From positions 124,001 through 188,000 of the forward strand of contig JAGVUB010000157.1 of assembly GCA_019136515.1 (NCBI GenBank): a DNA stretch of 64,000 nucleotides, read 5' to 3'. The notes under the pieces are model-generated. The model was not told the origin of the DNA. It saw nothing but the letters and a program-made list of their open reading frames with translations, and did not search any database. Origin of the DNA: Verrucomicrobiota bacterium. GTDB taxonomy: Bacteria; Verrucomicrobiota; Verrucomicrobiia; Opitutales; Opitutaceae. Position 1 is the stretch's first letter; the number at the start of each line of letters is the position of its first letter. The position numbers were made by a program, and so were the translations under genes. Of the stretch, positions 4,203 to 19,683 are shown one piece after another.

Positions 4203-4333
4203 GGGAACGCCGCGGGCGACCGCGGCGGTGGAAGCACGATGTCCGGCCCCGCGGGGCGCGCAATGTTTGTCGGGCGTGGCCGGGGCGTGCCGGGTGCTTG
4301 CCGCGGTGGGGGCGGCACGTTTCGCTCGGGCGC

Positions 4334-4849: not shown

Positions 4850-4901
4850 GCGGGAGGTTTTTGCATTCGCGCGCCGGATTGGGCCGTTGCAGAAGGGTGC
4901 C

Positions 4902-6231: not shown

Positions 6232-6705
6232 ATGAAACTCTACCTCGTCCGCCACGCCCACGCCCTGTCCGATGCCGAGGATCCCGCGCGTCCGCTCAGT
6301 CCGAAGGGGCGGGAGGTGGCGCTGGCGATGGGGCGGTGGCTGGGCCGGCACGCCAAGCCGGCGGTGCTGGAACTCTGGCACAGTCCGCTGGTGCGCGCGC
6401 GGGAGACGGCGGAGCTGTTCGCCGAGGGCGCCCACCTGAAGGTGCCGCTGCGCGAGGCCGCGGGGCTGTTGCCGGAGGATCCGCCGGAGCCGATGGCCGC
6501 GGCGCTGGGCCGTCATGGCGATTCGGTGATGATCGTGGGGCACGAGCCGTTCCTCTCCGCGCTCGCCGGCCACCTGCTCGGCCTCGGCAACGGCGGGGTG
6601 GAGTTCCAGAAGGGCGCGGTGCTCTGCCTCGAGCGCGGACCGCGCGGCACGCCGTGGACGCTCGCCTGGCATGTGAGCCCGACGATCGTGGTCGGCGACG
6701 AGTGA
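6232..6705 (+). CDS. sixA: Phosphohistidine phosphatase SixA-like
   Basis: A 157-residue member of the histidine phosphatase superfamily, SixA type, which removes phosphate from phosphohistidine on signalling or phosphotransfer proteins. The catalytic RHA motif is at the N-terminus (MKLYLVRHAHA, His 8). The second motif pair is present (WHSPLVRARETAEL), and the late catalytic His lies in VMIVGHEPFLSAL. Length and motif spacing are normal for the short SixA form. Start is the ATG at 6232; the region upstream is repeat DNA. No kinase or phosphotransfer partner is adjacent, so the substrate is not evident. Confidence 0.88.
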   Translation: MKLYLVRHAHALSDAEDPARPLSPKGREVALAMGRWLGRHAKPAVLELWHSPLVRARETAELFAEGAHLKVPLREAAGLLPEDPPEPMAAALGRHGDSVMIVGHEPFLSALAGHLLGLGNGGVEFQKGAVLCLERGPRGTPWTLAWHVSPTIVVGDE

Positions 6706-7249
6706 TCAGTGGCCGGTAGGCGGTGGACGGTGGGCGGTGGACAGAAGGCGGATGACGGCCGACCGAGTGACAGGTACCGGAAACGGACGACGGACGGCTG
6801 ATGACGGATTGCGGCGCGGGCGGTCGCTGCCCTCGCGCGCCGCGCTACGGGTGGGAAGCTCGGATTCTTGGGACGTCATCAGCGTCCATCAGCGTTTATC
6901 AGCGGTTCCACTCTCCGGTGGCTCGGCTTCCTGATTTCCGCATTCTCCGTGTCCGGTTTCCGGAGTGTTGTGAACCACTGATGGGCTTCGCCAAGGGGCG
7001 AAGCCTTGGGCGTGTCCTGCGGCTGATCGCCGCAGGGGCGACGGGTGCCGGCGCCCGCTGATCGCGGGCGGTCGCTGCACTCACGCGCAGCGCTACAGAT
7101 GGCGGGTGTGGCAGGGTGCTTTGGATTTCCGGAATCCATCAGTGTGAATGAGTGTGCTCTGCCGTACGGCAGAGTGGTTCCAGTTTCCGTCGCTTGGTCC
7201 GGTTTCCGGAGTTGGATTGGCATCGGGTCCCGGCTGAGAATCGACGCCG
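6706..7249. repeat. Non-coding repeat mosaic between sixA and the RmlD-like gene
   Basis: No gene seen. It holds a purine-rich GGTGGACGGTGGGCGGTGGA tract, a hairpin-plus-GCTAC unit, CATCAGCG repeats, an inverted arm, a triple-hairpin element at 6972-7071, another hairpin-GCTAC unit, and a one-mismatch copy of the 20-base palindrome at about 7155-7174. Confidence 0.82.
6972..7071 (+). repeat. Triple-hairpin element, copy 2
   Basis: Same order and strand as copy 1: GAACCACTGATGGGCTTCGC, then CCTGCGGCTGATCGCCGCAGG-type and CGCCCGCTGATCGCGGGCG hairpins, followed directly by GGTCGCTGCACTCACGCGCA. Confidence 0.88.
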
Positions 7250-8179
7250 ATGCGAATCTTCCTCACCGGGGCCTCGGGCCTGCTCGGCGGCAACTTCGCC
7301 GCGGTGGCGGCGCGCGCCGGGCATGAGGTGACCGGTGTCGTGGGTTCGTGGAACGGCGCGCCGATCGCCGGGTTGGCGCGACAGCTCCGCCTCGACCTGA
7401 CCGATCTCGCGTCGATCGCCGCGGCGGTGCGGGCGGCCCGCCCGGAGGCGATCGTCAACTGCGCGGCGATGTCGGAACCGGCGCAGTGCGAGCGCGAGCC
7501 GGAACGCGCGGGGGCGCTCAACGTGGCGCTGCCGCGGCGGCTGGCGGAGCTGGCGGCGGAGCTCGGCGTGCGGCTGGTGCATGTCTCCAGCGAGCAGGTC
7601 TTCGATGGCACGCGGGCGCCGTACGGCGTCGCCGACCCGGTGGCGCCGCTCACGCTCTACGGTCGCCAGAAAGCGGAGTCGGAGCGCGCGGTGCGGGCCG
7701 CGGCGCCGGGGCTCGGGGCCGCGGTGCGCGTGCCGCTGCTGCTGGGCCACAGCCCGGGCGGCCGGCGCAGCGTGCACGAGCGGCTGCTGCGCGACTGGGC
7801 CGAGGGGCGCGCGGCGCGCCTCTTCACCGACGAGATCCGGCAGGTGTGCATGGCCGACAATCTCGCCGCCGTGTTGCTGGAGCTGTGCGGACCCGCGGCG
7901 CCGGGCGGGATTCTCCACTGGGCCGGCGCGCAACCGGTTTCCCGTTACGAACTCGGCCGGGCGATCGCGGCGCGGTTCGGTCTCGACGCGGCGCAGCTCA
8001 TCGTGCCCGTGCGGCTCGCGGGCACGGCGCTCGCGGCCGTGCGGCAGGCGGATCTCTCGCTGGATCTGCGGCCGCTGAGTGAAGCGCTCACGACGAAGCC
8101 CGAGCCGCTCGCCGTGCAGGTGGCGCGGTTGGCTGTGCCGGATGATCTGCGCGAGTCGCTGGCGCGGCTGGGCGCGTAG
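7250..8179 (+). CDS. Extended SDR, dTDP-4-dehydrorhamnose reductase (RmlD)-like
   Basis: A 309-residue NAD(P)-dependent extended short-chain dehydrogenase. The Rossmann motif is at the N-terminus (LTGASGLLGGNF). NCAAMSEPAQCEREPE is the RmlD-type 'NaAAyt.vD.aE' segment in variant form. The catalytic region has VHVSSEQVFDGT and then LYGRQKAESER, the YxxxK motif. Members reduce dTDP-4-keto-rhamnose or act on related nucleotide sugars, or serve as MAT2B-like proteins. The replacement of the usual AYTxVD suggests a substrate other than the standard one. No other rhamnose gene is nearby. It is flanked on both sides by repeat mosaics. Confidence 0.82.
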   Translation: MRIFLTGASGLLGGNFAAVAARAGHEVTGVVGSWNGAPIAGLARQLRLDLTDLASIAAAVRAARPEAIVNCAAMSEPAQCEREPERAGALNVALPRRLAELAAELGVRLVHVSSEQVFDGTRAPYGVADPVAPLTLYGRQKAESERAVRAAAPGLGAAVRVPLLLGHSPGGRRSVHERLLRDWAEGRAARLFTDEIRQVCMADNLAAVLLELCGPAAPGGILHWAGAQPVSRYELGRAIAARFGLDAAQLIVPVRLAGTALAAVRQADLSLDLRPLSEALTTKPEPLAVQVARLAVPDDLRESLARLGA

Positions 8180-8209
8180 TCGCTCGCCCGCCGATCGCAG
8201 GCCGAGGCA

Positions 8210-8376
8210 AATCTGGAACTCAGCGTAGACGCGCCGGGGCGCGGCCTTGCGGGGAAGCAACACGGCCGAGTCGTCGGAGCGGAGGATGACCACGGATCAC
8301 ACGGATGGGCACGGATGATCGGGGGACGATCCGTGGACATCCGTGAAATCCGTGGTTTCAGGTTCATGTTGCTTGA
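8210..8376 (+). repeat. ATCCGTG inverted-repeat element, copy 1
   Basis: Begins AATCTGGAACTCAGCGTAGA and ends TTCATGTTGCTTGAG. Its right half is one large inverted repeat whose arms each hold three spaced copies of ATCCGTG or its complement. A near-identical copy lies at 10044-10214. Confidence 0.85.
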
Positions 8377-8536
8377 GCGCGTGGACGCAGGAAACGAAGC
8401 CCGAAACGGCGGAGCGCCCGGGATTTCCGGGACCATCAGTGTGAATTAGTGTGGATTAGTGGTTCCACTCTCCGCGGCCTGGCTTCCTGAGTTCGTGGGT
8501 TCCAGATTCTCAGCGGTTCAGTATCCGGAGTTTTGT

Positions 8537-8636
8537 GAACCACTGATGGTCTTCGCCAAGGGGCGAAGCCTTGGGAGTGTCCTGCGGCTGATCGCCGCAG
8601 GGGCGGTGGGTGGCGGCGCCCGCTGATCGCGGGCGG
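8537..8636 (+). repeat. Triple-hairpin element, copy 3
   Basis: The three stem-loops are conserved; the first reads GGTCTTCGCC instead of GGGCTTCGCC. Same strand as the other copies. Confidence 0.87.
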
Positions 8637-8859
8637 ATGGGGAGAATGTGGAAATCAGGAATACGGGAACGGAGAGCGGGGAGCGCTTGGGGTTTTCCGG
8701 GATCCATCAGCGTCCATCAGCGTGCTCGGCCGTACGGCAGAGCAGTTCCATGCTCCGGGGGCCGTTTCCTGGTTCCCTGATTTCCACATTCCTTCCGCCG
8801 CCATCTGTTCCTGAGTTCGTGAGTTCCAGATTCTTCGGGAGCGGATCTTCGGAGGTTTT

Positions 8860-8959
8860 GAACCACTGATGGGCTTCGCCAAGGGGCGAAGCTTTGAGGG
8901 CGTCCTGCGGCTGATCGCCGCAGGGGCGGTGGGTGGCGGCGCCCGCTGATCGCGGGCGG
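8860..8959 (+). repeat. Triple-hairpin element, copy 4
   Basis: Follows copy 3 by only about 220 bases. The three stem-loops are intact, and it runs into GTCGCTGCGCTCACGCCCAG. Confidence 0.87.
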
Positions 8960-9009
8960 TCGCTGCGCTCACGCCCAGCGCTACAAGCGGAGGCGGTGCA
9001 TGGCGGCGC

Positions 9010-10008
9010 TCAGCGCTTCTTCCAGGGCGTGGCGGCGAGGGCGCGCTCGGCCTTGAGCTTGAGGTAGCTGGTCACGCGGCCGAGCTCGAGCGTGCCGGCG
9101 GCGAGCGCGGCCTGCACGGCGCAGCCGGGCTCGGTGCCGTGGCGGCAGTCGCGGAACCTGCACAACGCGGCGGCGGCGGCCACCTCGGGGAAGAGCTCCT
9201 CCAGCGGTGTATCCGCATCCCAGAACTGGAATTCGCGCATGCCGGGCGTGTCGAGCAGCAGCACGCCGCCGGGGCCGACGAGCAGCTCGCGGCTGGTGGT
9301 GCAGTGGCGCCCCTTGGCATCGGCCTCGCGCACCTCCTGCACGGCCTGCACCTCGTCGCCAAGCAGGCGGTTGACCAGCGACGACTTGCCCACGCCGGAG
9401 ACGCCGAGGAAGGCCACGGTCTCGCGTTTGCGCAGCCAGGGCTTGAGCGCCTTGGCGCCGCCGCGTTTCACGGCGTTGGCGGTGACGACCGGCGCGCCGC
9501 CCACGAGCGGTTCGAGCTCGGCGCGGAGGGAGTCGGGCGACTCGTGCAGGTCGGCCTTGTTGAGCACGACGACGGGGGCGATGCCGCCGGAGCGCACCGC
9601 CGTGAGGAAACGTTCGATGCGGCGGTGGTTCACCGGGGCGTCGAGGCCCACGACGATGAAGACGGTGTCGAGGTTGGCGGCGAGGATCTGCTGCTCCTCG
9701 CGGCGGAAACCGGCGGCCTGGCGGGAGAGCACGGTGCGGCGCGGGAGCACGGCGAGCAGGCGCGCGCGGGGTTCGTCGGCGCGCGGCTCCACGGCCACCC
9801 AGTCGCCCGCGACGGGCAGATCGGCGCGTTTGGCGGAGCGGTGGCGGAGCTTGCCGGCGGGTTCGGCGAGGATCTCGCCCTCGTCGGTGGTCACGCCCCA
9901 GCCGCGTCCGAAGTCGGCGGTGACGCGCGCGGGCACCACGCCCGGCGCGGCGAAGGGCGCGAAGGCGGCGGCGAGGGAGTCGTTCCAACCGAGGGCGGCG
10001 AGGGACAT
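9010..10008 (-). CDS. rsgA: Ribosome small-subunit GTPase RsgA (YjeQ)
   Basis: A 332-residue circularly permuted GTPase that acts in late 30S ribosome assembly. It has an N-terminal OB-fold region (residues 25-110), the early G4 motif VVVLNKADL (147-154), G1 GVSGVGKSS (202-210), G2-like GRHCTTSREL (233-242) and G3 LLDTPGMREF (251-260). A C-terminal zinc site is formed by Cys283, Cys288, His290 and Cys296 in CRFRDCRHGTEPGC. Order and length are normal. The start at 10008 (MSLAALGWND) excludes an in-frame upstream extension that runs into repeat DNA. Confidence 0.94.
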   Translation of the reverse strand: MSLAALGWNDSLAAAFAPFAAPGVVPARVTADFGRGWGVTTDEGEILAEPAGKLRHRSAKRADLPVAGDWVAVEPRADEPRARLLAVLPRRTVLSRQAAGFRREEQQILAANLDTVFIVVGLDAPVNHRRIERFLTAVRSGGIAPVVVLNKADLHESPDSLRAELEPLVGGAPVVTANAVKRGGAKALKPWLRKRETVAFLGVSGVGKSSLVNRLLGDEVQAVQEVREADAKGRHCTTSRELLVGPGGVLLLDTPGMREFQFWDADTPLEELFPEVAAAAALCRFRDCRHGTEPGCAVQAALAAGTLELGRVTSYLKLKAERALAATPWKKR

Positions 10009-10043
10009 GGCAGAGGACAGAGAGCAGAAGACGGAGACCGGAG

Positions 10044-10214
10044 GAATCTGGAACTCAGCGTAGACGCGCGCCGGGGCGCGGCCTGGCGGGGAAGCAACAA
10101 CGAGGAACCATTCCAGCAGAGGGTGACCACGGATCACACTGATGGGCACGGATGATCTCGGGACGATCCGTGTACATCCGTGAAATCAGTGGTTTCTGGT
10201 TCATGTTGCTTGAG
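10044..10214 (+). repeat. ATCCGTG inverted-repeat element, copy 2
   Basis: Near-identical to 8210-8376 over its whole length, including the GGCGCGGCCT segment, the triple ATCCGTG arms and the TTCATGTTGCTTGAG end. It lies just upstream of rsgA's start, so it may contain or displace that gene's promoter. Confidence 0.85.
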
Positions 10215-10288
10215 AGGAATCAGAAATGGACGACGGAGGGCGGACGACGGAATGGCGAAATGTGGGAATCAGGAAAACGGGAGGGGGC

Positions 10289-10729
10289 TCAGTCGAACTC
10301 GTTGAGCGTGAGGGTTGGGGGCACGGTGGACGGTGGTCGGTCAGCGGTGGACCGTGGCCGGTTGGCAGTGGCCGGTTGCCGGTGGTCGGTGAACGGTGGA
10401 CGGTGGTTGGCAGCTGGTGTGGCGCTGGGCGCGGGAGCAGCGCTCGGCTGCCGGGTGTCGGTGCCGGGGGTGGTCTGGCGGACGAGCTGCCGGAGCGTGG
10501 GGAAGAGGGGATGGGCGGCGTTGGCGCGGTAGTACCGGCGGTTGCCGTCGCGTTCGCTGACAACGAGTTGCGCGGCGGCGAGCTTGGCCAGCTCGGTCTG
10601 GATCGTACCGAGGGCGAGGCCGCTGCGGCGGGTGAGCTCGCGCAGGTGCAGCTCGGCGGAAGCGTCGGCGAAAAGCAGCCGCAGGACTTGGGCGCGGACT
10701 TGGGGGAAGAGGATGGAGAGCAGATCCAC
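10289..10729 (-). CDS. Winged-helix regulator with a repeat-derived C-terminal tail
   Basis: A 146-residue protein. Residues 1-82 form a winged helix (LFPQVRAQVLRLLFADASAE, LHLRELTRRSGLALGTIQTE, LVVSERDGNRRYYRANAAHP). In known proteins with this HTH wording, a nucleotidyltransferase domain usually follows. Here, from about residue 88, the sequence is DTRQPSAAPAPSATPA and then Arg/Pro/Thr-rich text encoded by the GGTCGGTGAACGGTGGACGG repeats that also fill spacers. The catalytic domain is therefore absent, and the tail and stop codon come from repeat DNA. It may still bind DNA, or be a decaying gene. Confidence 0.6.
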   Translation of the reverse strand: MDLLSILFPQVRAQVLRLLFADASAELHLRELTRRSGLALGTIQTELAKLAAAQLVVSERDGNRRYYRANAAHPLFPTLRQLVRQTTPGTDTRQPSAAPAPSATPAANHRPPFTDHRQPATANRPRSTADRPPSTVPPTLTLNEFD

Positions 10730-11149
10730 GACGACTGGTTAAAGCGGACGGATGACTGGATAAAGCGAACGAAAGGGGAGGCAAGACGGAAGCTGGAGGG
10801 CGGAGGGATGGACCACTAATGCACACTGATGGACACTAATGTCGGAGCGGAGGAGGGGGCGCGGACGACCGATGACAGAGGACCGATGACAGAGGACCGA
10901 TGACAGAGGACAGACGACAGAGGACGGAGGACAGAGGGCGGGGGGCGGAGGACGGGGTGACAAGTGGCAGGTGGGGCGGATGGCGGAAGACTGGGCGAAT
11001 CTGGAACTCAAGAAATCAGGAACGGATGGTGGCGGAAGGAATGTGGAAATCAGGGAATCAGGAACGGATGGTTCACAACGGAAGAGGGAAGGCCGGACGA
11101 ATCTGGAACGCAGGGAATCAGGAAACGCTCCCGGCGGACGGGCGGTGGC
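10730..11149. repeat. Purine-rich and arm-repeat spacer
   Basis: No gene seen. It contains the GATGACAGAGGACC tandem array at 10867-10960, then several copies of the 'GAATCTGGAACTCA' or 'GAATGTGGAAATCAGG' arm (10985-11125), all on the plus strand. Confidence 0.75.
10867..10960 (+). repeat. Purine-rich tandem repeat
   Basis: Three perfect 14-base units of GACCGATGACAGAG decay into GACAGACGACAGAGGACGG and GGGCGGGGGGCGG. Nearly all purine on this strand except for the C in each GAC. Confidence 0.85.
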
Positions 11150-11425
11150 CTATTCGGCGAGCAGGGCGGCGAGATCGAGCGGGTGGGTGGACATCGCCAG
11201 CGAGCCGTCGGGCGTGCGGGGCCATTGGTCCTGCGGGCGGTCGCGGTAGAGCTCCACGCCGTTGCCGTCGGGATCGCGGAGGTAGAGCGCCTCGCTCACG
11301 CCGTGATCGGCGGCGCCGTCGAGCGCGATGCCGGCGCGTTGGAGGCGCCGGAGGGCATCGGCCGAGGTGGCGCGGTCGGTCGGGTGGGCATGGGCGAAGG
11401 AAGCCGCGGAAAGCGCGGCCCGCAA
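11150..11425 (-). pseudogene. VOC/glyoxalase-fold dioxygenase, C-terminal half only
   Basis: About 90 residues matching the last half of a vicinal-oxygen-chelate protein: ATSADALRRLQRAGIALDGA, ADHGVSEALYLRDPDGNGVE and LYRDRPQDQWPRTPDG. This includes the metal-binding Glu of GNGVELY and the DHG motif. The N-terminal VOC module is missing. The homologous text begins at about 11415, some 12-20 bases from a 12-base palindrome at 11435-11446; upstream in frame there is a stop near 11444, and the only start is a TTG. The 5' half was evidently lost when the neighbouring restriction-type/defence DNA arrived. Confidence 0.78.
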
Positions 11426-11434
11426 CCGCCGCGC

Positions 11435-11473
11435 GTTTATGACTCATCGTCTATAAACTTCTGAGTCATAAAC
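11435..11473 (+). promoter_or_regulatory. Palindromic operator/promoter before a truncated XRE gene
   Basis: Perfect 12-base inverted repeat GTTTATGACTCA (11435-11446) and TGAGTCATAAAC (11462-11473) around a 15-base AT-rich spacer holding TATAAA. It precedes the XRE fragment start by 15 bases. The GACT...AGTC core resembles the C-boxes bound by controller proteins of restriction-modification systems. The palindrome is seen; the regulator assignment is inferred. Confidence 0.6.
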
Positions 11474-11488
11474 CTGTAGGATCGCCGG

Positions 11489-11605
11489 ATGCGAAAACAG
11501 AAGGCGAAGCCCCTCGTCCGCTTCGGCGAGAATGTCCGCGCGTTGCGCGAGAAGAAGGAGTGGACGCAGGAACGCTTGGCCGCCGAGACCCTTAGCAGGC
11601 GGTAA
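11489..11605 (+). pseudogene. XRE-family regulator, truncated after the first HTH helices
   Basis: A 38-residue open frame starting MRKQKAKPLVRFGENVRALR and continuing EKKEWTQERLAAET, the start of an XRE/Cro helix-turn-helix. After AAET the frame reads LSRR and stops at 11605. The break (about 11590) falls exactly where the lower-GC island begins, since the 3' end of the DUF2075 gene lies at 11592. I read this as a regulator cut by insertion of the island. Confidence 0.72.
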
Positions 11606-13583
11606 GGCTTCGGATTCCGCAGGTGAGCAGATAATCAGCGACCGGATCGTAGTATTCTGGAAGGCGGGTTGGATCGTTGGGATCGCCCTTGGGTACGAAG
11701 ATCACAAGGCCTTGTCGCGCGCGAGTTAGCAGAACGCGGTGAGCGTTGAGCAGGTATCGGCGGCTGGTCTCATCGCAAACTTGCTCCCACCTCGTCCCTC
11801 TGAATTTCCGGAACGCCCAAGCATTTCCATCCCGGCGCAAGTTTGCATCCCAGCCAACCAAGCTCCAGTCGAGCTCGAGGCCCTGAATGTCGAACTCGGT
11901 CGCGACTTCCTCCAGGTAATGACAGGAACGAACGTCAGCCGAGTCGTTCAAGAACCAGACTTCTGGCTCAATCTTCGCGGCGACATCCATCCCCTCGGGG
12001 CGAAGGCGTCTTGCCCCCGAATAGGCAGTCAGACCAATCAGCTCCGATCCTCGCTTCTTCCAGCGCAGCCACCGTTGACCAACAGGCAGGCTCCGAGTGA
12101 GGAGCACTGGGTAGTTCTCACGAATTGCGGAATAGCAGCTCGCGGCTTTGTCAGGCTCGTTGTCGATCACATGCCCAACGAATTTGGATAGGGTTTCTGC
12201 CCTGAAGGAGCGAAGCGAGACGCCGAGGTGTAAACTTGGTGACGACGATGAATGAAGGCCTGCCGTGAGCTCGCCAACAGGTTGATGGCTCGAGTACTCG
12301 TGCGTTGCGAAACGATCGGAGTAGAACACTTGCCAGTGTGAGAACCGCGCACGCAATGCTCGGAACCACTCAGGAAGGCCCGCTTCCCCTGAGTTGATTT
12401 CCTGCCCTCCACCAACTAGCGCGATGATCACACACCAATCGGCGTGCCGGTCCATGACCTCGATGAGAAACTCAGGCTCAGAAGAATGGAACTCCGTGAG
12501 GTCCCGCTTGGTGCGCATGAACTTTGATGTGTGCTCCTGATCCCATGCGCGCTGGGCTTCGTCGAAGACGACGACTTTTTCGACCGTGGCCAGATTGCTG
12601 GCGAGGTTCGAGTCACGAAAATGGTGTATGTTCTGAATGAACGCATGCGCGTTGCGATTCGCGTCCTTGAGTGAAACTGAAGTGCGTTCCTTCTGGTCTC
12701 GGGCAAGTGCAGCGCGCAGGACTGAAACGAGCGGGCCATTTCCGGAAAGAAAAACAGCATGCTCGTCGCTGTGGTGCCGCATGCGGTCAGTGGTGATGTT
12801 TAGGCCCGCCAGAGTCTTTCCCGCACCAGGAACGCCGGTCACGAAACAGATGGCTTTCTGCCGTTTGGCTTTCGCCGCCTCGATGATCTCGCTGATCGCC
12901 TGCGTTGTTTCACTGAGGTTGATCGCGCTCGCGTCGCTCCGCGCGATCTCAGCGACACTATGGTCTCGGTACAGCGCCCGAGCTGCCTCGATGATGGTCG
13001 GCGTCGGCTTATAGCGGGAGTTTGCCCATGCCTTTCCTTCGACTTCCGGGGCGGGGGGCAGGGCTGCGATAACCTCTGTCACCGTTTGCCGCAGGTCTCT
13101 GGCGTTGCAGCACTGACAATTTGCGACCCGGTCTGTGTGGAAGCTGATGGTGTTTTTCGCCGGGTTCGCGGCTGTCGCGATTACGATCGGGATGATACTC
13201 GCGGCGTGGCTGCCCTCGTGGAAATTTTTGAGGTCCAAGGCGTAGTCGACTGCCTGTGCCAAGGCAGCGGATGCATAGACCGACTCTCCTATCTTGAACT
13301 CAAGGACGATTACTGCACTGCGAATGATCAGTGCGGCATCAGCTCGCTTGCCCATCCTCGGGATCTTGAGCTCGAGGAACACCATACTGCAATCGGTGCC
13401 ATGAAGCTGATCCCTGAGGATCCGGATTTCGTCCCGCCAAGCGTTTCGCTGTTGGATGCTTTGGTCGTGCTCCGCAGCTGCTGCGAGGTGTCCCAGAATG
13501 GTGTTCTCATCCGCAGCCAAGAACTCCGCGAGCGATGCCGAGAAGTACGCTCGTCCGATTGGTGTGCAGCCGCTGGCGCTCAT
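11592..13583 (-). CDS. PD-(D/E)XK nuclease-SF1 helicase fusion, DUF2075 family
   Basis: A 663-residue protein. Residues 78-98 read GKRADAALII...VLEFKIG, with Asp82, Glu95 and Lys97 as a PD-(D/E)XK nuclease site. After a linker comes a DUF2075 (Schlafen group 3-like) helicase. Walker A is FVTGVPGAGKT (ending Thr257), Walker B VVVFDEAQRAWDQ (337-349), LVGGGQEINSG (motif III-like) follows, and helicase motif VI is VLLTRARQG (617-625). The family is found in mobile and defence loci, but its mechanism is not established; cutting or unwinding foreign nucleic acid is inferred. It follows the XRE gene by 14 bases in the same direction, so the two form an operon. Base composition is clearly less GC-rich than the neighbours, a sign of transfer. 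Confidence 0.85.
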   Translation of the reverse strand: MSASGCTPIGRAYFSASLAEFLAADENTILGHLAAAAEHDQSIQQRNAWRDEIRILRDQLHGTDCSMVFLELKIPRMGKRADAALIIRSAVIVLEFKIGESVYASAALAQAVDYALDLKNFHEGSHAASIIPIVIATAANPAKNTISFHTDRVANCQCCNARDLRQTVTEVIAALPPAPEVEGKAWANSRYKPTPTIIEAARALYRDHSVAEIARSDASAINLSETTQAISEIIEAAKAKRQKAICFVTGVPGAGKTLAGLNITTDRMRHHSDEHAVFLSGNGPLVSVLRAALARDQKERTSVSLKDANRNAHAFIQNIHHFRDSNLASNLATVEKVVVFDEAQRAWDQEHTSKFMRTKRDLTEFHSSEPEFLIEVMDRHADWCVIIALVGGGQEINSGEAGLPEWFRALRARFSHWQVFYSDRFATHEYSSHQPVGELTAGLHSSSSPSLHLGVSLRSFRAETLSKFVGHVIDNEPDKAASCYSAIRENYPVLLTRSLPVGQRWLRWKKRGSELIGLTAYSGARRLRPEGMDVAAKIEPEVWFLNDSADVRSCHYLEEVATEFDIQGLELDWSLVGWDANLRRDGNAWAFRKFRGTRWEQVCDETSRRYLLNAHRVLLTRARQGLVIFVPKGDPNDPTRLPEYYDPVADYLLTCGIRSLTAC

Positions 13584-13597
13584 CGGTGGGCTCAGGC

Positions 13598-13843
13598 CTA
13601 GGTCTCCATGCCGAGCAACCAGGTCGCTTTGACCTTCAGCACCTGCGCCAAAGCTTTCACTTCGAAATCGGATACGTAGCGGCGGCCGGTCTCGATCTTG
13701 GCGATTCCAGCTCGATCAATAGGGACACCGCGCACCGCGAGTTTCCCGGAAAGGTCGTCCTGCGATACGGCCGGAGTGCGCGCGAGACGAGCTTCACGCA
13801 CCTTCTTGCCGACAATGTTTACGTTCCTCTTTGGAACAGCCAC
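13598..13843 (-). CDS. XRE-family transcriptional regulator of the island
   Basis: An 81-residue helix-turn-helix protein with a GTG start at 13843. It reads VGKKVREARLARTPAVSQDD, then LSGKLAVRGVPIDRAGIAKI, ETGRRYVSDFEVKALAQVLK, and ends WLLGMET, the usual XRE/HTH_3 layout. Its own start region and upstream spacer carry GTTCC-N5-GGAAC palindromes (13823-13837 and 13877-13891), so it probably represses itself and the downstream nuclease-helicase. This phage-repressor-like arrangement is typical of accessory and defence operons. Autoregulation is inferred from the site positions. Confidence 0.85.
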   Translation of the reverse strand: MAVPKRNVNIVGKKVREARLARTPAVSQDDLSGKLAVRGVPIDRAGIAKIETGRRYVSDFEVKALAQVLKVKATWLLGMET

Positions 13844-13891
13844 GAAGCCAGGATACCAGGTCCCGGCTTGTCATGTGTTCCAAAATGGAAC
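13823..13891. promoter_or_regulatory. GTTCC-N5-GGAAC operator sites
   Basis: Two perfect inverted repeats: GTTCCTCTTTGGAAC at 13823-13837, overlapping the first codons of the XRE gene, and GTTCCAAAATGGAAC at 13877-13891, extended by TG/CA to 17 bases. A shortened version, GTTCCACAGAAC, follows at 13915-13926. Spacing and position suit a self-repressing XRE protein controlling divergent transcription. Confidence 0.68.
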
Positions 13892-13902
13892 AGCGAGACT
13901 GT

Positions 13903-14190
13903 ATGACGTCTCCTGTTCCACAGAACGGATTCTGCATCTTCATCCGTACCCTCTGCCAAGGGGTGGTTCCTTCATCGTTCGATGAAGGCGACCGTCCCGT
14001 CTTCTTTCGGGAGGAGATTGAGGCGCGGCGTGAGATTGCTGAGTACACGATCGAACGGCTTCAGCAGTTTCTCCGTGGAGAACGCGACTTTGAGGATGCG
14101 ATTTCCATCGAAGAGTTTGTTGCCCCCGTCATCCGCTATGCGGACGGAACCATCGTTGACGAAGCTGGCAACAGACTCAGCTCACTCTGA
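13903..14190 (+). CDS. Small hypothetical protein, divergent from the XRE gene
   Basis: About 95 residues; in-frame ATGs at 13873 and 13885 are alternative starts. The C-terminal 60 residues look like a folded acidic helical protein: VFFREEIEARREIAEYTIER, LQQFLRGERDFEDAISIEEF, then VAPVIRYADGTIVDEAGNRL. Base composition matches the island rather than the chromosome. It diverges from the XRE gene across the GTTCC-N5-GGAAC sites, so the same repressor may control it. A 9-base stem CCTTCATCG/CGATGAAGG (13969-13988) lies inside its 5' part. I do not recognise the family; a small partner or antidote of the nuclease-helicase is possible but unproven. Confidence 0.5.
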   Translation: MTSPVPQNGFCIFIRTLCQGVVPSSFDEGDRPVFFREEIEARREIAEYTIERLQQFLRGERDFEDAISIEEFVAPVIRYADGTIVDEAGNRLSSL

Positions 14191-14274
14191 TGGCGCGGAA
14201 CCGGTCGGCGGGAAACGCGTCGACGCTCTGCTGTTTCGCAGAGTCTCCGGCGCCCTGCGCCTCCGAGGCGGCTG

Positions 14275-14871
14275 GTGGCGCTGCTGCGGGCGGGCGGCAT
14301 CACGGGGTGGAGGCGGGGGCAGCGGTTGGCGCTGCGGCGACTGTGGCCGGTTGCCGGTGGACATGCGGACGAACGGGGGCTGAAGCATCCCGCCACGACG
14401 GACCGGAGCTGCGGCCACGGACCGGCTACCGGCCACCGTTCACTGGCCACCGGTACGGTGCAGCCCGACTTCGTGTTTCGGCGGGAGCGGCTGGTGGTGT
14501 TTGTCGACGGGTGCTTCTGGCACGGGTGTCCGCGGCACTACACGCGGCCGAAGGCGCGGCGGGCGTTCTGGGACGCCAAGATCGCGGCCAACCGGGCGCG
14601 CGACCGGCGGATCGACCGGGCGTTGCGCGCGGCGGGCTGGCGGGTGCTGCACGTGTGGGAGCATGCGCTGGCGCCGCGACAGCTCGGGCGCACGCTGGCG
14701 CGGGTGCGGCGGGCGGTAGCCGGTGGACGGTGGCCGGTTGCCGGTAGACGGAGGGCGGTGGACGGAGGGCGGTGGACGTTCTGCCGTTCGGCATTCGTGC
14801 CCCCGGCAGAACCTGCGGGAATCTTCGGCGCGGCGCCTCCGAGTGGGTGGGCGGTTTCCGGTAGCCGGTAG
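14275..14871 (+). CDS. Vsr-like (very short patch repair type) endonuclease invaded by repeats
   Basis: The core reads VQPDFVFRRERLVVFVDGCF, WHGCPRHYTRPKARRAFWDA, KIAANRARDRRIDRALRAAG and WRVLHVWEHAL, the conserved C-terminal part of Vsr and related PD-(D/E)XK nicking enzymes. The DFVF Asp, the WHGC segment and the final WEHAL are present. The expected N-terminal half survives only as LVALLRAGGITGWRRGQRL (the gene starts at a GTG within it). It is followed in frame by about 40 residues encoded by CCGGTTGCCGGTGGACATG-type repeat DNA. The last 55 residues are also repeat text, and 14770-14855 is identical to intergenic 16931-17016. Probably inactive. Vsr genes usually sit beside cytosine methyltransferases; none is left here. 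Confidence 0.68.
   Translation: MALLRAGGITGWRRGQRLALRRLWPVAGGHADERGLKHPATTDRSCGHGPATGHRSLATGTVQPDFVFRRERLVVFVDGCFWHGCPRHYTRPKARRAFWDAKIAANRARDRRIDRALRAAGWRVLHVWEHALAPRQLGRTLARVRRAVAGGRWPVAGRRRAVDGGRWTFCRSAFVPPAEPAGIFGAAPPSGWAVSGSR
14770..14855 (+). repeat. 86-base repeat unit, copy 1 (inside the Vsr-like gene)
   Basis: Begins CGGTGGACGTTCTGCCGTTC and ends GAGTGGGTGGGCGGT. By eye it is identical base for base to 16931-17016. It supplies the C-terminal residues of the Vsr-like frame. Confidence 0.9.
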
Positions 14872-15537
14872 CCGGTAGACGGAGGACGGAGGGCGGTGCG
14901 GGCTATCGCTGCGCTACGAGGAGGGGCGGTCGGGCATCTGCGTCCATCAGCGTTTATCCGCGGTTCCACTCTCCGCGGCTCGGTCCGGTTTCCTGATTTC
15001 CTGAGTTCCACATTCTCCCGTGTTCGAAATCCGGAGTGTTGTGAACCATTCTCCCGTGCGGAAGAACCTTCGGCTGATGGCCTTCGCCAAGGGGCGAGGC
15101 CTTGGAAGTGTCCTGCGGCTGATCGCCGCAGGGGAGGAGGGTGACGGCGCCCGCTGATCGCGGGCGGGTGGGGTGAATGTGGAAATCCGGAACACAGGAA
15201 CCGAGAAGACCAGGCGGGCGCGGTGCGCGGCCGCGAGATCCCGGAACGGTTCACGAGCAGGAACAAGTGGAGCCGGAGCGCTTCCTCTGTGCTCTCTGTG
15301 GACTCTGTGGTTCATTTCCGCTGTCAGCGTGCTCCTCGATACGGCAGAGCGGTTCCATGCTTCGCGGTCTGGTCCGGTTTCCTGAGTTCGTGAGTTCCAG
15401 ATTCTCCGGGCCCTGAAACGAGGGGGCGGTGCCGGCGGCCGGGCCGCTGGGCGGGCTTTGGCGCCGCTGGCGGCCCGGGACGCCCCGGTCGCAAGATTCG
15501 GTTCGCCGTAATGGCCGTCCGCTGACCATCCTCCGCC
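14872..15537. repeat. Non-coding repeat mosaic between the Vsr-like gene and the cyclase
   Basis: No gene seen. It holds GGTAGACGGAGGACGGAGGG runs, CATCAGCG words, an inverted arm, triple-hairpin copy 5 (15074-15168), a GAATGTGGAAATCCGG arm paired with GTTTCCTGAGTTC near 15380, a CTCTGTG run, and a degenerate 20-base palindrome at 15331-15350. Confidence 0.82.
15074..15168 (+). repeat. Triple-hairpin element, copy 5
   Basis: Divergent at its left end (CTGATGGCCTTCGCCAAGGG replaces the usual GAACCACTGATGGGC), but the second and third stem-loops are intact. Confidence 0.84.
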
Positions 15538-16893
15538 ATGGAAAACCGGACGCCCCTCGACCTGACCAACCAGGACCTCTCGAGCATCGAACAATACCGG
15601 CTGCGGCGGCAGACCTCCGTGCTGGTCATCCTGTTCACCGACATCAAGGGCTTCACCGAGATCGGGGAGCGCCGCGGCGAGCGGCATGCCGTGGAGCTGC
15701 TGCGCGGGCACGACGAGATCGTCGTGCGGGCAGTCGAGGAGGGCGGGGCCGGGCTGGTCGTGAAGCACATTGGCGACTCGGTCATGGCGGTGTTCGCGGA
15801 GCCCTCGACGGCCGTGGAGCGCGCGCTGCGCATCCAGGAGGAGACCGTCGCCTTCAACGAGTCCCACCCGGAGCTCGAGACGCTCGGCATCCGCATCGGC
15901 CTGCACATGGGCCAGGTGGCGGTGGAGAACCAGACGCAGCTCGACCTGGTGGGCCGGCACGTCAACCGCGCCTCGCGGGTGGAGGCGCTGGCCGACGCCG
16001 GGCAGATCTATCTCACGTATCCGGTCTTCGACAGCGCCCGCGGCTGGCTGCGCGCGCAGACCGGGCGCACGCTGGACTGGAAGCTGCACGGCAGCTACGT
16101 CCTGAAGGGGCTCGCGGACCCGGTGGAGATCTACGAGGTGGTCGATGTGCGACGCCGCGCGCCCGCGGCCCCGAAGGGGGTGCGGCGCAAGCTCCGGCTG
16201 CTGCCGGTCTGGCTGGCGGTGGGGGTGCTCGTGGCGGGCGCCGGGGTGCTCTACGGTTTCCACCGCTACCAGCGCACGGAGGTGTATTTCACGAACTGGA
16301 ACAAGGAGCTGACGCTTGTCGACCAGCAGCAGGTGCTCGCGTTGGCCGGCGACCGCGCGCAGGAGTCGCGCGCGGCGATCACGCCGTTCTCAGTCGGCCG
16401 GCACCTGCTGCACCAGGACATCAACGACCAGGTCCGGAACTACATGGAGGTCGACATCAAGCGCGGGCTCAACGTGATCCCGGCCGCGATGGTCCCGGTC
16501 TACCTCCCCGACTTGGAGCGCCGGCTGGACTTCGAGCCGGGCCGGCGCGAGCAGGTCGAGGCGCAGCAGAGCTTCGCGTATCCGGTCTACGACAAGGAGA
16601 ACCGCCGGCACGAGATGAAGGCGGAACTCTCTGTCGCGATCAAGGGGGTGCCGGACGCGGCCGATCCGGACCACATGGTCTTCCAGTGCACGTGGAAGGC
16701 GGTGGAGAACGGCGTCGTGATCGGGTCCGACACCTTCGAGCTGAAGAGCCCGACCAAGGAGGACGACCGGCAGACGCGCCGGATCGTGGTCCACGAGTCG
16801 CCCACGCATTTCTGGTATGTGCGTACCTACACCAACCGGCGCTCGGCCGAGCTCGAGGTCGGCGCGGCGTACATCGAATACAAGAACAAGTAG
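15538..16893 (+). CDS. Class III adenylate cyclase with a membrane helix and unknown C-terminal domain
   Basis: A 451-residue protein. Residues 24-205 form a class III cyclase domain with metal-binding Asp35 (FTDIKGFT) and Asp80 (KHIGDSVMAVF), Lys76 and Asp136 (QLDLVGRHVN) as adenine-selecting residues, and Asn143 and Arg147 for the transition state. All are present, so cAMP synthesis is expected. A single hydrophobic helix follows at 221-241 (LLPVWLAVGVLVAGAGVLYG). The remaining 205 residues, rich in charged and aromatic residues, match nothing I know. With the cyclase in the cytoplasm, this tail would lie outside the membrane and might sense a signal. Most membrane cyclases have the sensor before the catalytic domain, so the order is unusual. 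Confidence 0.88.
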   Translation: MENRTPLDLTNQDLSSIEQYRLRRQTSVLVILFTDIKGFTEIGERRGERHAVELLRGHDEIVVRAVEEGGAGLVVKHIGDSVMAVFAEPSTAVERALRIQEETVAFNESHPELETLGIRIGLHMGQVAVENQTQLDLVGRHVNRASRVEALADAGQIYLTYPVFDSARGWLRAQTGRTLDWKLHGSYVLKGLADPVEIYEVVDVRRRAPAAPKGVRRKLRLLPVWLAVGVLVAGAGVLYGFHRYQRTEVYFTNWNKELTLVDQQQVLALAGDRAQESRAAITPFSVGRHLLHQDINDQVRNYMEVDIKRGLNVIPAAMVPVYLPDLERRLDFEPGRREQVEAQQSFAYPVYDKENRRHEMKAELSVAIKGVPDAADPDHMVFQCTWKAVENGVVIGSDTFELKSPTKEDDRQTRRIVVHESPTHFWYVRTYTNRRSAELEVGAAYIEYKNK

Positions 16894-16930
16894 GAAGGTG
16901 GCCGGTTGTCGGTGGGCGGTAGCCGGTGGA

Positions 16931-17016
16931 CGGTGGACGTTCTGCCGTTCGGCATTCGTGCCCCCGGCAGAACCTGCGGGAATCTTCGGCGCGGCGCCTC
17001 CGAGTGGGTGGGCGGT
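16931..17016 (+). repeat. 86-base repeat unit, copy 2 (intergenic)
   Basis: Identical by eye to 14770-14855. It contains TTCTGCCGTTCGGCA and GGCGCGGCGCCTCCGAGTGG. A related shorter form lies at 18017-18065. Confidence 0.9.
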
Positions 17017-17191
17017 GGGCGGCGCGGACTATCGCTGCGCTCACGCGCCGCGCTGCGAGGCGGGCACGCGGTTTTTCCGGGATCCATCAGCGTGCATCAG
17101 CGTTTATCGGCGGTTCCACTCTCCGCGGCTCGGTCCGGTTTCCTGATTTCCTGAGTTCCACATTCTCCCGTGTCCGAAATCCGGAGGTTTT

Positions 17192-17291
17192 GAACCGCTG
17201 ATGGGCTTCGCCAATGGGCGAAGCCTTGAGCGTGTCCTGCGGCTGATCGCCGCAGGGAAGGTGGGTGTAGGTGCCCGCTGATCGCGGGCGG
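17192..17291 (+). repeat. Triple-hairpin element, copy 6
   Basis: GAACCGCTGATGGGCTTCGC, then the three stem-loops. One change (GCC to GAA) lies between hairpins 2 and 3, as in copy 1. Confidence 0.88.
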
Positions 17292-17456
17292 GAGAAGCTG
17301 CGCGGTGGTTGGTATTCGGAGATCGCGATCCTGCGAAGATCGAGCGGTTGGCCGGAGCCATCAGCGCCCATCAGCGTGCTCTGCCGTGCGGCAGAGCGGT
17401 TCCACTCTCTGGAACTCGATTCCTGATATCCTGAGTCCCGGATGCGCTCGTCCGGC

Positions 17457-17873
17457 TCAGAAACGGGGCAGCGGCTTCTTCTGCCAGGTCTCGCAGATGT
17501 GGGCGTACTCGGCCTGGAGCGCGTCGGCGCAGGGCAGCGTGCGGGCCTGGAGTTCGAGCGTCTTCGTGGTTTTGCCGAGCACCAGCCCGATGCCGCACAG
17601 CACGAGCACGACGGCCAGCCCGAGCAGGCCGGCGGTGAAGGCGAGCGTGACGCTGCCCAGGATGATGAGCGCGCCGAGCCCGATGATGGCGAGTGCGCCG
17701 TACATCTGGCCGCGGACGAGTTGCTTGAAGGCGACCAACGCGGCGTCGCCGTCGATCGCGGTGTGGGTGGCGAGGAACGCCTTCAGGCCGCGCTGTCCGA
17801 TCAACTGGACGCCGAGGAACACGAGCTGGAGGAGCAGATAGGGGATGAAGAGGGCGGGGAGGATGCTATTCAT
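17457..17873 (-). CDS. Hypothetical four-helix membrane protein
   Basis: A 138-residue protein with hydrophobic segments at about 4-25 (ILPALFIPYLLLQLVFLGVQ), 58-78 (YGALAIIGLGALIILGSVTL) and 79-100 (AGLLGLAVVLVLCGIGLVLG), plus a weaker one between the first two. The loop after helix 1 is LIGQRGLKAFLATHTAIDGD. A soluble tail (TKTLELQARTLPCADALQAE) ends in KKPLPRF. I do not recognise a family. It stands alone between two repeat-filled spacers and converges with the cyclase gene. Confidence 0.7.
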   Translation of the reverse strand: MNSILPALFIPYLLLQLVFLGVQLIGQRGLKAFLATHTAIDGDAALVAFKQLVRGQMYGALAIIGLGALIILGSVTLAFTAGLLGLAVVLVLCGIGLVLGKTTKTLELQARTLPCADALQAEYAHICETWQKKPLPRF

Positions 17874-18306
17874 GGGAGGGCGCGAGGCGCCGGCGGGGTT
17901 GCCGGTGTGCGAGAAGGATGGCGACGGGAGGGGCCGTGGCCATCCGTGCTGGATGAGTGGCCGCGGGAATCGGCGACCGGGCGGCGCGAATGGCGCGAGG
18001 GGCGGTTGCCGGTGGACGTTCTGCCGTGCGGCAGAATCTCCGGCGCGGTGCGCCTCCGAGTGGGTGGGCGGTTTCCGGTAGCCAGTAGCCAGTAGCCAGT
18101 AGCCGGTAGACGGAGGACGGAGCGGGCGGTCGCTGCGCTCACGCGCAGCGCTACGAGGAGGGCGCGAGGGTTTTCCGGGCCCCGTCAGCGTTTATCCGCG
18201 GTTCCAATCTCCGAGGTCCGGTTTCCTGATTCCCTGATTTCCACATTCCAGGGGTCGCTCCGCATCGGGTCTTGTGTCGGCGGCGACGGTGGACAGTGGT
18301 TGCGGC
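17874..18306. repeat. Repeat-containing spacer upstream of engB
   Basis: No gene seen. It holds the TTCTGCCGTGCGGCAGAA palindrome unit (18017-18046), GCCAGTAGCCAGTAGCCAGT short tandem copies, a GCTGCGCTCACGCGCAGC hairpin followed by GCTACGAGGAGG, and an inverted arm (TTCCTGATTTCCACATTCC) near 18225-18248. Confidence 0.8.
18017..18046 (+). repeat. 30-base palindrome-plus-tail unit (intergenic copy)
   Basis: Contains TTCTGCCGTGCGGCAGAA followed by TCTCCGGCGC. By eye all 30 bases are identical to 22584-22613, which lies inside the DUF748 coding sequence. Confidence 0.9.
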
Positions 18307-18897
18307 ATGATCATCAAATCCGCGGAGATCGAGGCCAGCACGCCGACCCTGCAGGGGGCGCCGAAGGACGCGCTGCCGGAGTTCGCCTTCATCGGGCGGT
18401 CAAACGTGGGCAAGTCGTCGCTGGTCAACCTGCTGGCGCAGCGGCGCGAGCTGGCGCTGGTCTCGGCCACGCCGGGCAAGACGCGGCTGCTGAACTTTTT
18501 CCGGATCAACAACGACTGGCGGATCGTCGACCTGCCCGGCTACGGCTTCGCGAAGGGCGCGAAGGGCGAGCGTGCGGACTTCAATGTGGCCGTGGCCGAC
18601 TACCTCGAGCGCGGCGCGAACGTGACGTGCGTGTTCGTGCTGGTCGATGGCTCAATACCACCCCAGCGGCTCGACCTGGAGTTCCTGCGCTGGCTGGACG
18701 GCTGCGACGTGCCGTTCGTGGTGGTCTTCACGAAGGCCGACAAGGTGGGCCGCGGGCGCTACAAGCAGGTGGCCGAGCAGTTCGGCCGCGAGCTGGCGGC
18801 GGCGGGCGTGGCGATGCCGGAGCACTTCTTCGTGTCGGCGACGAAGCGCGAGGGCCGCGAGGAGCTGCTGAAGTTCATCGAGGCGCAGCTGGGCTGA
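18307..18897 (+). CDS. engB: Ribosome biogenesis GTPase EngB (YsxC/YihA)
   Basis: A 196-residue GTPase needed for large-subunit assembly. G1 is IGRSNVGKSSL (29-39), followed by the family's TPGKTRLLNFF, G3 VDLPGYGFAKG, VFVLVDGSIPPQRLD, and G4 VVFTKADKVGRG with G5-like VSATKREG. The ATG at 18307 gives MIIKSAEIEAS, the usual EngB N-terminus; upstream in-frame residues come from repeat DNA. It stands as a single gene between repeat mosaics. Confidence 0.95.
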   Translation: MIIKSAEIEASTPTLQGAPKDALPEFAFIGRSNVGKSSLVNLLAQRRELALVSATPGKTRLLNFFRINNDWRIVDLPGYGFAKGAKGERADFNVAVADYLERGANVTCVFVLVDGSIPPQRLDLEFLRWLDGCDVPFVVVFTKADKVGRGRYKQVAEQFGRELAAAGVAMPEHFFVSATKREGREELLKFIEAQLG

Positions 18898-19183
18898 GCG
18901 GTGCCGGAGAAGAGAATGTGGAAGTCAGGAAAACGGGAACGGAACCCGGAGGGACAGGGTAACGAGGTGGCAGGGTTACAGCGTAACAGGGTGACAGAGT
19001 GAGAAAGGGCAGGGGCGGCGCGGACTATCGCTGCGCTCACGCGCAGCGCTACGAGGAGGGCATGCGGATTTGCCGCGCCCCATCGGCGTGCTCTGCCGTA
19101 CGGCAGAGCGGTTCCACTCTCCGCGGTCCGGCTCCTGATTTCCTGAGTTCCAGATTCTCTGGGGTCCGAAATCCGGAGGGTGT

Positions 19184-19283
19184 GAACCACTGATGGGCTC
19201 CGCCAAGGGGCGAAGCCTTGCAGGTGTCCTGCGGCTGATCGCCGCAGGGGCGGTGGGTGTCGGCGCCCGCTGATCGCGGGCGG
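19184..19283 (+). repeat. Triple-hairpin element, copy 7
   Basis: GAACCACTGATGGGCTCCGC, with one base weakening the first stem, then hairpins 2 and 3 intact and the GCTGCGCTCACGCGCAGC hairpin. Confidence 0.88.
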
Positions 19284-19436
19284 TCGCTGCGCTCACGCGC
19301 AGCGCTACCGGCAAGGCCGAGTGCCCGGGCGGCCGGGCATCAGCGTTTATCGGCGGTTCCCCTGCGTCCTGGCCTGGTCCGGTTTCCTGATTTCCCTGAT
19401 TTCCACATTCTCCCCGTTTGGGTTCCGGAGTGTTGT

Positions 19437-19536
19437 GAACCACTGATGGGCATTCGCCAATGGGCGAAGCCTTGGGAGTGTCCTGCGGCTGATCGCCGCA
19501 GGGATGGTTGATGGCGGCGCCCGCTAATCGCGGGCG
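19437..19536 (+). repeat. Triple-hairpin element, copy 8
   Basis: GAACCACTGATGGGCATTCG, one base longer at hairpin 1. The third loop is TAATC instead of TGATC. Last copy before the DUF748 gene. Confidence 0.87.
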
Positions 19537-19683
19537 ATCGCTGCGCTCACGCGCAGCGCTACCGGCAAGGCCGAGTGCTTGGGCGGCCGGGCATCAGCGT
19601 CTATCAGCGTTTATCAGCGGTTCCATTCTCCGATGTCCGGTTTCCGGATTCCCTGATTTCCACATATCCAGCCGGGTCGTTCC

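What the first reader, a model, noticed from the sequence alone, without database searches (positions are those of the whole stretch)
11435..14871. Defence-type island spliced into an older restriction-like locus
A lower-GC segment carrying a PD-(D/E)XK nuclease-DUF2075 helicase fusion plus XRE regulator begins exactly where an XRE gene is cut (about 11590) and ends just before a Vsr-like endonuclease. On the left lies half a VOC gene next to a C-box-like palindrome. Vsr enzymes and C-proteins belong with cytosine restriction-modification systems, so the flanks look like the two ends of a lost R-M locus whose middle was replaced by a newer system. The nuclease-helicase, its regulator and the small divergent ORF at 13903-14190 are a candidate uncharacterised antiphage module.
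Basis: partly seen in the sequence, partly recalled or inferred. Interest (0 to 1): 0.75.

Follow-up and report, generated by a model that had tools for sequence, protein, structure and literature searches.

The report
Swappable nuclease module beside decaying vsr
A bacterium carries an imported, probably antiviral DNA-cutting gene, with its own switch and a small acidic protein, installed at the edge of an old DNA-repair gene where relatives carry other restriction modules instead, so the spot looks like an exchange site for such defences.

Summary
A low-GC block (helicase gene GC3 0.67, small ORF 0.60, neighbours 0.89-0.95) runs from a cut XRE gene (about 11,590) to a vsr relic (about 14,190). 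The helicase is full-length PADLOC PDC-S41 (E 3e-276), a catalogued but untested defence candidate. The 95-aa ORF founds an unannotated acidic family ("SMALL") in 42 of 252 family genomes. In 53 of 58 SMALL loci an interchangeable nuclease lies within 3 kb: HNH_2, PDC-S41, SRA-HNH, PLD-helicase-DUF3427 or McrBC; a C5-methyltransferase in 2. Vsr lies downstream of SMALL, same strand, in 34 of 58. Vsr genes without SMALL sit with C5-methyltransferases in 17 of 26 loci; the two contexts are mixed on the Vsr tree, and Vsr copies near SMALL are more often fragments (17 of 31 against 4 of 35). The XRE has a 17-bp operator at all 10 XRE-bearing SMALL loci and at none of 48 others. But the same-genus relative sharing both flanks holds another methyltransferase-less nuclease set, not an R-M system. 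That PDC-S41 restricts modified phage DNA is inferred.

The parts
11150..11425 (-). Second half of a VOC/glyoxalase gene, first half missing
   Evidence: tblastn to 163-aa relative, residues 72-151 only; weak PF00903
11435..11473 (.). Perfect inverted repeat, 12-bp arms, 15-nt spacer, upstream of the cut XRE gene
   Evidence: left arm kept and right arm degraded in G001
11489..11605 (+). Start of an XRE / control-protein-like gene (38 codons), cut where the helicase gene ends
   Evidence: its first part is 79% identical in same-genus G001
11592..13583 (-). PDC-S41 effector: N-terminal PD-(D/E)XK nuclease (E71, D82, E95, K97) fused to a Schlafen-group-3 SF1 helicase (residues 243-631)
13598..13843 (-). 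81-aa XRE regulator, upstream of and co-directional with the effector
   Evidence: 67-68% identical to the XRE of cassettes with other effectors
13823..13837 (.). Putative XRE operator 1, GTTCCTCTTTGGAAC, overlapping the start of the XRE gene
13876..13892 (.). Putative XRE operator 2, TGTTCCAAAATGGAACA, just before the small ORF
   Evidence: the motif is present in 10 of 10 XRE-bearing SMALL loci and 0 of 48 others
13903..14190 (+). SMALL: 95-aa acidic protein of an unannotated conserved family
14190..14871 (+). vsr relic: N-terminal piece in one frame (14190..), core 14275-14871 in another, interrupted by genomic repeats

Best explanation
This is a foreign, methyltransferase-less restriction-type module (PDC-S41 effector, XRE repressor, acidic SMALL protein) installed at the 5' edge of a resident vsr gene. 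The place belongs to a class of vsr-edge exchange slots in which either cytosine R-M genes or one of several SMALL-linked nuclease effectors are found. Likely working: the XRE binds two 17-bp palindromes in the roughly 60-bp divergent promoter and holds down both its own effector operon and SMALL; on invasion repression is lifted; the SF1 motor of PDC-S41 loads on foreign DNA and its PD-(D/E)XK domain cuts it. As no methyltransferase protects host sites, discrimination must come from the target, most likely modified (for example 5mC/5hmC-type) phage DNA, as in the SRA-HNH and McrBC enzymes that occupy the same position elsewhere. Vsr, whose job needs a cytosine methyltransferase, is left without purpose and decays. 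Shown: gene association, operator conservation, catalytic invariance, foreign composition, different middles between shared flanks in two same-genus genomes, vsr fragmentation. Inferred: repression, antiviral effect, modification dependence, role of SMALL.
For: PDC-S41 full-length match and invariant catalytic residues. Effector within 3 kb of SMALL in 53 of 58 loci: HNH2 27, PDC-S41 16, SRA-HNH 4, PLD-DUF3427 3, HNH2+PLD-DUF3427 1, HNH2+SRA-HNH 1, McrBC 1. Held-out check: 15 of 15 out-of-family loci, none used as seeds of the effector models, have an effector. C5-methyltransferase near SMALL in 2 of 58, against 17 of 26 vsr loci without SMALL (among vsr-bearing loci Fisher 6e-7). XRE 67-68% conserved across different effectors; operator in 10 of 10 XRE-bearing against 0 of 48 other SMALL loci, two exact sites in 4.1 Mb of own genome, one of them here. 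G000 and G001 share the XRE start (79%) and vsr (85-88%) but have different middles. GC3 of vsr near host (-0.02), effector -0.19, SMALL -0.22; vsr above effector in 22 of 23 loci. Vsr contexts mixed on the tree: 14 changes, shuffled mean 13.4. Vsr fragments: near SMALL 17 of 31, near C5-MTase 4 of 35. C5-MTase in 9 of 42 SMALL genomes against 91 of 210 others, none in G000. A vsr-like protein causes the DNA damage response of Caulobacter cells that lost their solitary C5-methyltransferase (PMC12907096, abstract and one section read).
Against: No functional data. PDC-S41 has no recognised modified-base reader domain, and 9 of 42 SMALL genomes do hold a C5-methyltransferase. The 9/42 against 91/210 contrast is not corrected for kinship. 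14 of 31 vsr rows near SMALL are full-length, and a viral contig carries HNH2-SMALL-VSR as one co-directional run (L282), so vsr can travel with the cassette. 23 of 58 SMALL loci show no vsr within 5 kb. Both flanks were seen shared with one relative only (G001), whose contig ends just past vsr; no empty site was found. PDC-S41 lies in a SMALL cassette in only 11 of the 24 family genomes that have it, and in none of 80 loci fetched elsewhere.
Confidence: 0.6

Rival explanations
1. Vsr is a working subunit: SMALL and the Vsr-like nickase form one machine with the effector, and fragments are merely dying copies of whole cassettes.
For: Vsr is on the same strand as SMALL in 35 of 35 loci that have it and downstream in 34; full-length in 14 of 31 rows; HNH2-SMALL-VSR run on viral contig L282.
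Against: Vsr GC3 is host-like while effector and SMALL are not; vsr contexts are mixed with R-M on the tree; 23 of 58 SMALL loci lack vsr within 5 kb; fragments are commoner near SMALL than near methyltransferases, and 14 of the 17 lack the cassette-facing N-terminal part.
Confidence: 0.2
2. PDC-S41 senses free DNA ends or replication intermediates (RecBCD-, Gabija- or Nhi-like) and does not read base modification.
For: Nuclease-helicase architecture; best solved folds are SLFN11/SLFN14, RecD and UvrD; weak PADLOC Nhi and AbiO matches; no modified-base reader domain found; outside this group it has no fixed partners among those tested.
Against: It occupies the same position as SRA-HNH, McrBC and DUF3427-type enzymes that PADLOC or Pfam files as modification-dependent; SMALL genomes are poorer in C5-methyltransferases.
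Confidence: 0.35
3. One reading: an R-M locus (control protein ... methyltransferase, nuclease ... vsr) whose middle was replaced once by an unrelated island.
For: Control_protein match of the cut XRE; vsr kin next to C5-methyltransferases; exact break points.
Against: No relative was found with the cut XRE joined to a methyltransferase; G001 shares both flanks and has no R-M genes between them. Vsr next to SMALL is frequent (34 of 58), not a single accident.
Confidence: 0.3

Closest known systems
PDC-S41 (PADLOC-DB phage defence candidate, PDLC05014)
   Same: Full-length match E 3e-276, residues 11-661 to profile 3-654 of 657
   Different: The PADLOC profile is one gene; here it comes with XRE, two operators, SMALL and a vsr relic
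Schlafen group 3 helicase domain (PF09848, formerly DUF2075); human SLFN11/SLFN14
   Same: PF09848 241 bits; SLFN11 is the top Foldseek hit, E 3e-10, with VIA Z 16.7-17.0
   Different: N-terminal nuclease has PD-(D/E)XK spacing D82-x12-E95-x-K97; overall TM about 0.3; 14% identity
SRA-HNH modification-dependent endonucleases (TagI, PMC6212794, abstract read)
   Same: A SAD_SRA+HNH protein sits in the same slot, next to the same XRE, operators and SMALL (L151, L158, L159, L244, L248)
   Different: Unrelated domains; shared slot, not shared ancestry
Cytosine R-M loci with vsr
   Same: Same vsr subfamily near a C5-methyltransferase in 17 of 26 loci
   Different: No methyltransferase here
Nhi / AbiO nuclease-helicases
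   Same: Nuclease-helicase idea; weak profile overlap around the Walker A motif (E 0.002)
   Different: No full-length similarity

Membership tests
PDC-S41 (PADLOC) | full-length profile match | tested here: met
   E 3e-276, 915.8 bits
PDC-S41 (PADLOC) | antiphage activity | not testable with these tools
   candidate only; 'PDC-S41' occurs in no paper of the library searched
PD-(D/E)XK nuclease | conserved E..D..E-x-K on the core strands | tested here: met
   E71, D82, E95, K97 invariant in 54 of 54; strands 65-74, 79-87, 90-97 then helix 105-121 in the model. The fold of this domain alone was not searched
Schlafen group 3 helicase (PF09848) | score above the gathering cut-off | tested here: met
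   241 bits, cut-off 24
Schlafen protein (animal type) | N-terminal Schlafen nuclease core | tested here: inconclusive
   no Schlafen-core Pfam match listed; PD-(D/E)XK-type motif instead; VIA rows cover mainly residues 193-663
Type II R-M system | cognate DNA methyltransferase in the locus | tested here: not met
   no C5-methyltransferase HMM hit in the 64-kb window; no PF00145 match in G000 at E 1e-10; N-type methyltransferases sought by motif only, in 4001-24000
Type IV (modification-dependent) restriction | no cognate methyltransferase | tested here: met
   (C5 type by profile; N type by motif only)
Type IV (modification-dependent) restriction | cleavage depends on modified DNA | not testable with these tools
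   inferred from slot sharing only
Vsr endonuclease | profile match | tested here: inconclusive
   PF03852 33 bits above cut-off 27; TIGR00632 92.8 below 97.85; PADLOC Vsr E 9e-16; frame broken
R-M control protein (cut XRE) | C-protein fold and C-boxes | tested here: inconclusive
   25-residue match E 4e-5; palindrome present but not compared with C-box models
XRE regulator with own operator (13598-13843) | conserved palindrome at its promoter in relatives | tested here: met
   10 of 10 XRE-bearing SMALL loci, plus L280 and L281 without SMALL; binding itself not tested

The most novel reading that the evidence does not exclude
A plug-in restriction chassis: one small acidic protein (SMALL), with or without a dedicated XRE switch and an 80-aa companion, works with at least five unrelated nucleases, so SMALL would be a general licensing or inhibitory partner (for example a DNA mimic that restrains whichever nuclease is installed, or lifts the XRE repressor). 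Modules are swapped against cytosine R-M systems by recombination at the 5' end of vsr, leaving stranded, decaying vsr genes as scars of past R-M systems.
Probability: 0.3. Interest if true: 0.8.

Novelty: new variant of a known kind. Interest (0 to 1): 0.6.

Why it matters
If right, it gives PDC-S41, a widespread but untested defence candidate (325 tblastn-confirmed candidates in one scan), a testable function by position: it stands where 5mC-type readers stand. It names a new small protein family as a marker for methyltransferase-less restriction modules, and it offers decaying vsr genes as a readable trace of lost cytosine methylation, in line with the reported harm of vsr without its methyltransferase (PMC12907096).

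Tried and rejected
The idea that Vsr is simply one end of a single lost R-M locus was my starting point; it was narrowed when SMALL-Vsr pairs turned up in many genomes. The opposite idea, that Vsr is a functional part of the cassette, was my view; moved me back to a resident or stranded vsr. Defence-gene enrichment around PDC-S41 in other phyla: 90 of 256 near ORFs and 90 of 162 far ORFs scanned, no visible gradient. Structure of SMALL: low confidence (pLDDT 70, two sequences) and no solved fold with E below 0.88; no Pfam or PDB sequence relative. SMALL in phage and plasmid records: no match. Exact palindrome of the cut XRE in viral contigs: none. Second operator-like site in the genome (C192) lies in unrelated surroundings and was not pursued. 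Literature: searches listed nothing that I recognised from titles and abstract starts as describing SMALL, a vsr-edge exchange slot or a characterised PDC-S41; a preprint cited inside PMC12839542 (bacterial Schlafens; passages of the citing paper read) was not read. PMC12458937 and PMC11090510 were read as found passages only.

Caveats on counts: effector models were seeded from SMALL neighbours themselves, so only the 15 out-of-family loci are an independent check. The 26 vsr loci without SMALL were picked from high-scoring rows (20) plus six fetched earlier, hence biased to full-length vsr; the full/fragment comparison therefore uses the genome-wide lists (119 vsr rows entered by hand), from which I dropped about 31 rows of the canonical Vsr type (about E 1e-27 to 3e-22) and in which weak rows were cut by the tool. 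In that comparison 41 methyltransferase rows were entered by hand, nearly all of them on contigs that also carry a vsr row, from a list the tool had also cut.
Full report
What is there. The window lies in G000:C2. Between a cut XRE gene and a vsr relic sits a block of low GC and low GC3 with three genes: a 663-aa nuclease-helicase (11592-13583, minus), an 81-aa XRE (13598-13843, minus) and a divergent 95-aa ORF (13903-14190, plus). The left edge is sharp: the helicase stop codon falls inside the cut XRE, which keeps 38 codons. Further left lies the second half of a VOC gene. On the right the small ORF stops at 14188-14190 and a vsr-like reading starts with an overlapping ATG at 14190; the vsr is out of frame after about a dozen codons and is interrupted by repeats.

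The helicase. It matches PADLOC candidate PDC-S41 from end to end and Pfam PF09848, now named Schlafen group 3 helicase. In 54 aligned sequences E71, D82, E95, K97, Walker A and Walker B residues are invariant. The AlphaFold model is confident (mean pLDDT 87.3). Its nearest solved relatives by Foldseek are human SLFN11 and SLFN14 and RecD; by VIA-align UvrD, SLFN11 and others at Z up to 17.9 over the helicase part. No PDB sequence relative was found at E 0.1. One scan of genome contigs gave 325 confirmed candidates; the best 80 come from bacteria of many phyla and some archaea at 48-56% identity.

The small ORF. It is a real protein family with no Pfam or PDB relative, found in 42 of 252 genomes of the window's family and in 18 out-of-family genomes among the 384 searched in the class (26 of 384 with a match in all). 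It was not found in phage and plasmid records, but one viral contig carries it. Most members are acidic (pI 4.0-4.9 in 12 of 14).

The cassette. I annotated 58 SMALL loci with locally built models. An effector lies within 3 kb in 53 of 58: HNH_2 in 29 (one also with PLD-ResIII-DUF3427, one also with SRA-HNH), PDC-S41 in 16, SAD_SRA-HNH in 5, PLD-ResIII-DUF3427 in 4, McrBC in 1 (overlaps counted twice). Pfam and PADLOC classify representatives accordingly. Because the models were seeded from SMALL neighbours, the independent check is the 15 out-of-family loci: 15 of 15 have an effector and 8 of 15 a vsr. The XRE subfamily accompanies 10 of 58, an 80-aa companion 16 of 58. The XRE is 67-68% identical to four counterparts, one next to PDC-S41 and three next to SRA-HNH.

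The switch. Every XRE-bearing SMALL locus (10 of 10) has GTTCY-N5-RGAAC once or twice upstream of SMALL; none of the 48 others has it. In 595 kb of these loci the motif occurs 19 times, 17 of them at these promoters. In the 64-kb window it occurs only twice, both between XRE and SMALL (2 of 100 shuffles reach two); the longer form occurs at two places in the whole 4.1-Mb genome, one here.

Vsr as the edge of an exchange slot. Vsr lies within 5 kb of SMALL in 35 of 58 loci, always on its strand and downstream in 34. Of 26 vsr loci without SMALL, 17 have a C5-methyltransferase within 6 kb; of the 35 with SMALL, 2 have one. On a 50-row vsr tree (short alignment, many unresolved forks) the two contexts are as mixed as shuffled labels; window and G001 are sisters (98/94). 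Vsr codon composition is host-like while effector and SMALL are not (vsr above effector in 22 of 23). In R-M loci vsr is likewise above the methyltransferase in 14 of 17, so this holds for both contexts. Vsr rows near SMALL are fragments in 17 of 31, near methyltransferases in 4 of 35, near neither in 17 of 53; 14 of the 17 lack the N-terminal part that faces the cassette (one search counted 15 of 18, including one row just beyond the 5-kb limit). In the same genus, G001 shares the cut XRE start and the vsr with the window, but between them holds HNH_2, a 223-aa ORF and a PLD-helicase-DUF3427 gene, also of low GC3 (0.63-0.73). So the two genomes have different middles between nearly the same edges. 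I conclude that vsr marks an edge where modules are swapped.

Why vsr should decay. Vsr repairs deamination products of 5-methylcytosine (established knowledge). In Caulobacter a vsr-like protein causes the DNA damage response of cells that lost their solitary C5-methyltransferase (PMC12907096; abstract and one results section read). A module swap that removes the methyltransferase should thus leave a useless or harmful vsr (inference). G000 has no PF00145 match at E 1e-10, and genomes with SMALL have such a gene less often (9 of 42 against 91 of 210, p 0.009 without kinship correction).

Function. Antiviral restriction is inferred from PADLOC candidacy, the intact nuclease and motor motifs, and above all from exchange with SRA-HNH, McrBC and other restriction-type enzymes in the same position. 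TagI, an SRA-HNH enzyme, acts on DNA with 5mC or 5hmC (PMC6212794, abstract). I therefore favour a target-side cue such as base modification for PDC-S41, but rate end or replication-intermediate sensing about as likely (0.35). The part played by SMALL is unknown; its charge and its divergent place beside a basic repressor suggest an antirepressor or nuclease inhibitor (speculation).

Against. PDC-S41 has many homologues without any of these partners: 0 of 80 loci from genome contigs have SMALL or vsr, 3 have the XRE. No relative with an empty site was found. G001's contig ends 184 bases past the vsr match. Several vsr genes near SMALL are intact.

Noticed in passing
L282 (IMGVR_UViG_3300045972_000789), 6885-8829: A 51.7-kb viral contig carries HNH_2, SMALL and vsr as one co-directional run, so the cassette can be virus- or prophage-borne.
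   Followed up: partly
window 14320-14460, 14714-14900 and other intergenic places: Dispersed GC-rich repeats (CCGGTTGCCGGTGGAC type and others) fill intergenic regions and interrupt the vsr gene.
   Followed up: partly
L159 7205-7450, L149 5999-6220 and others: A second ~80-aa unannotated family precedes SMALL in 16 of 58 loci and is fused to it in L153.
   Followed up: partly
L119 3672-4343: 223-aa ORF without any Pfam match between HNH_2 and the PLD-helicase gene in G001, in the place SMALL takes elsewhere.
   Followed up: no
L297, L127: Vsr of the same subfamily beside a pair of larger genes that look like AIPR-type and companion defence genes (label recalled, not tested).
   Followed up: no
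Vsr alignment A3: Most of this Vsr subfamily reads VDGCFWHGC where E. coli Vsr has a histidine (recalled H64); catalytic meaning not tested.
   Followed up: no
G085:C20 and C97, G005:C1:811603-813559: PDC-S41 genes broken into frames (G005) or split across contigs (G085), so the effector may decay too in some genomes.
   Followed up: no
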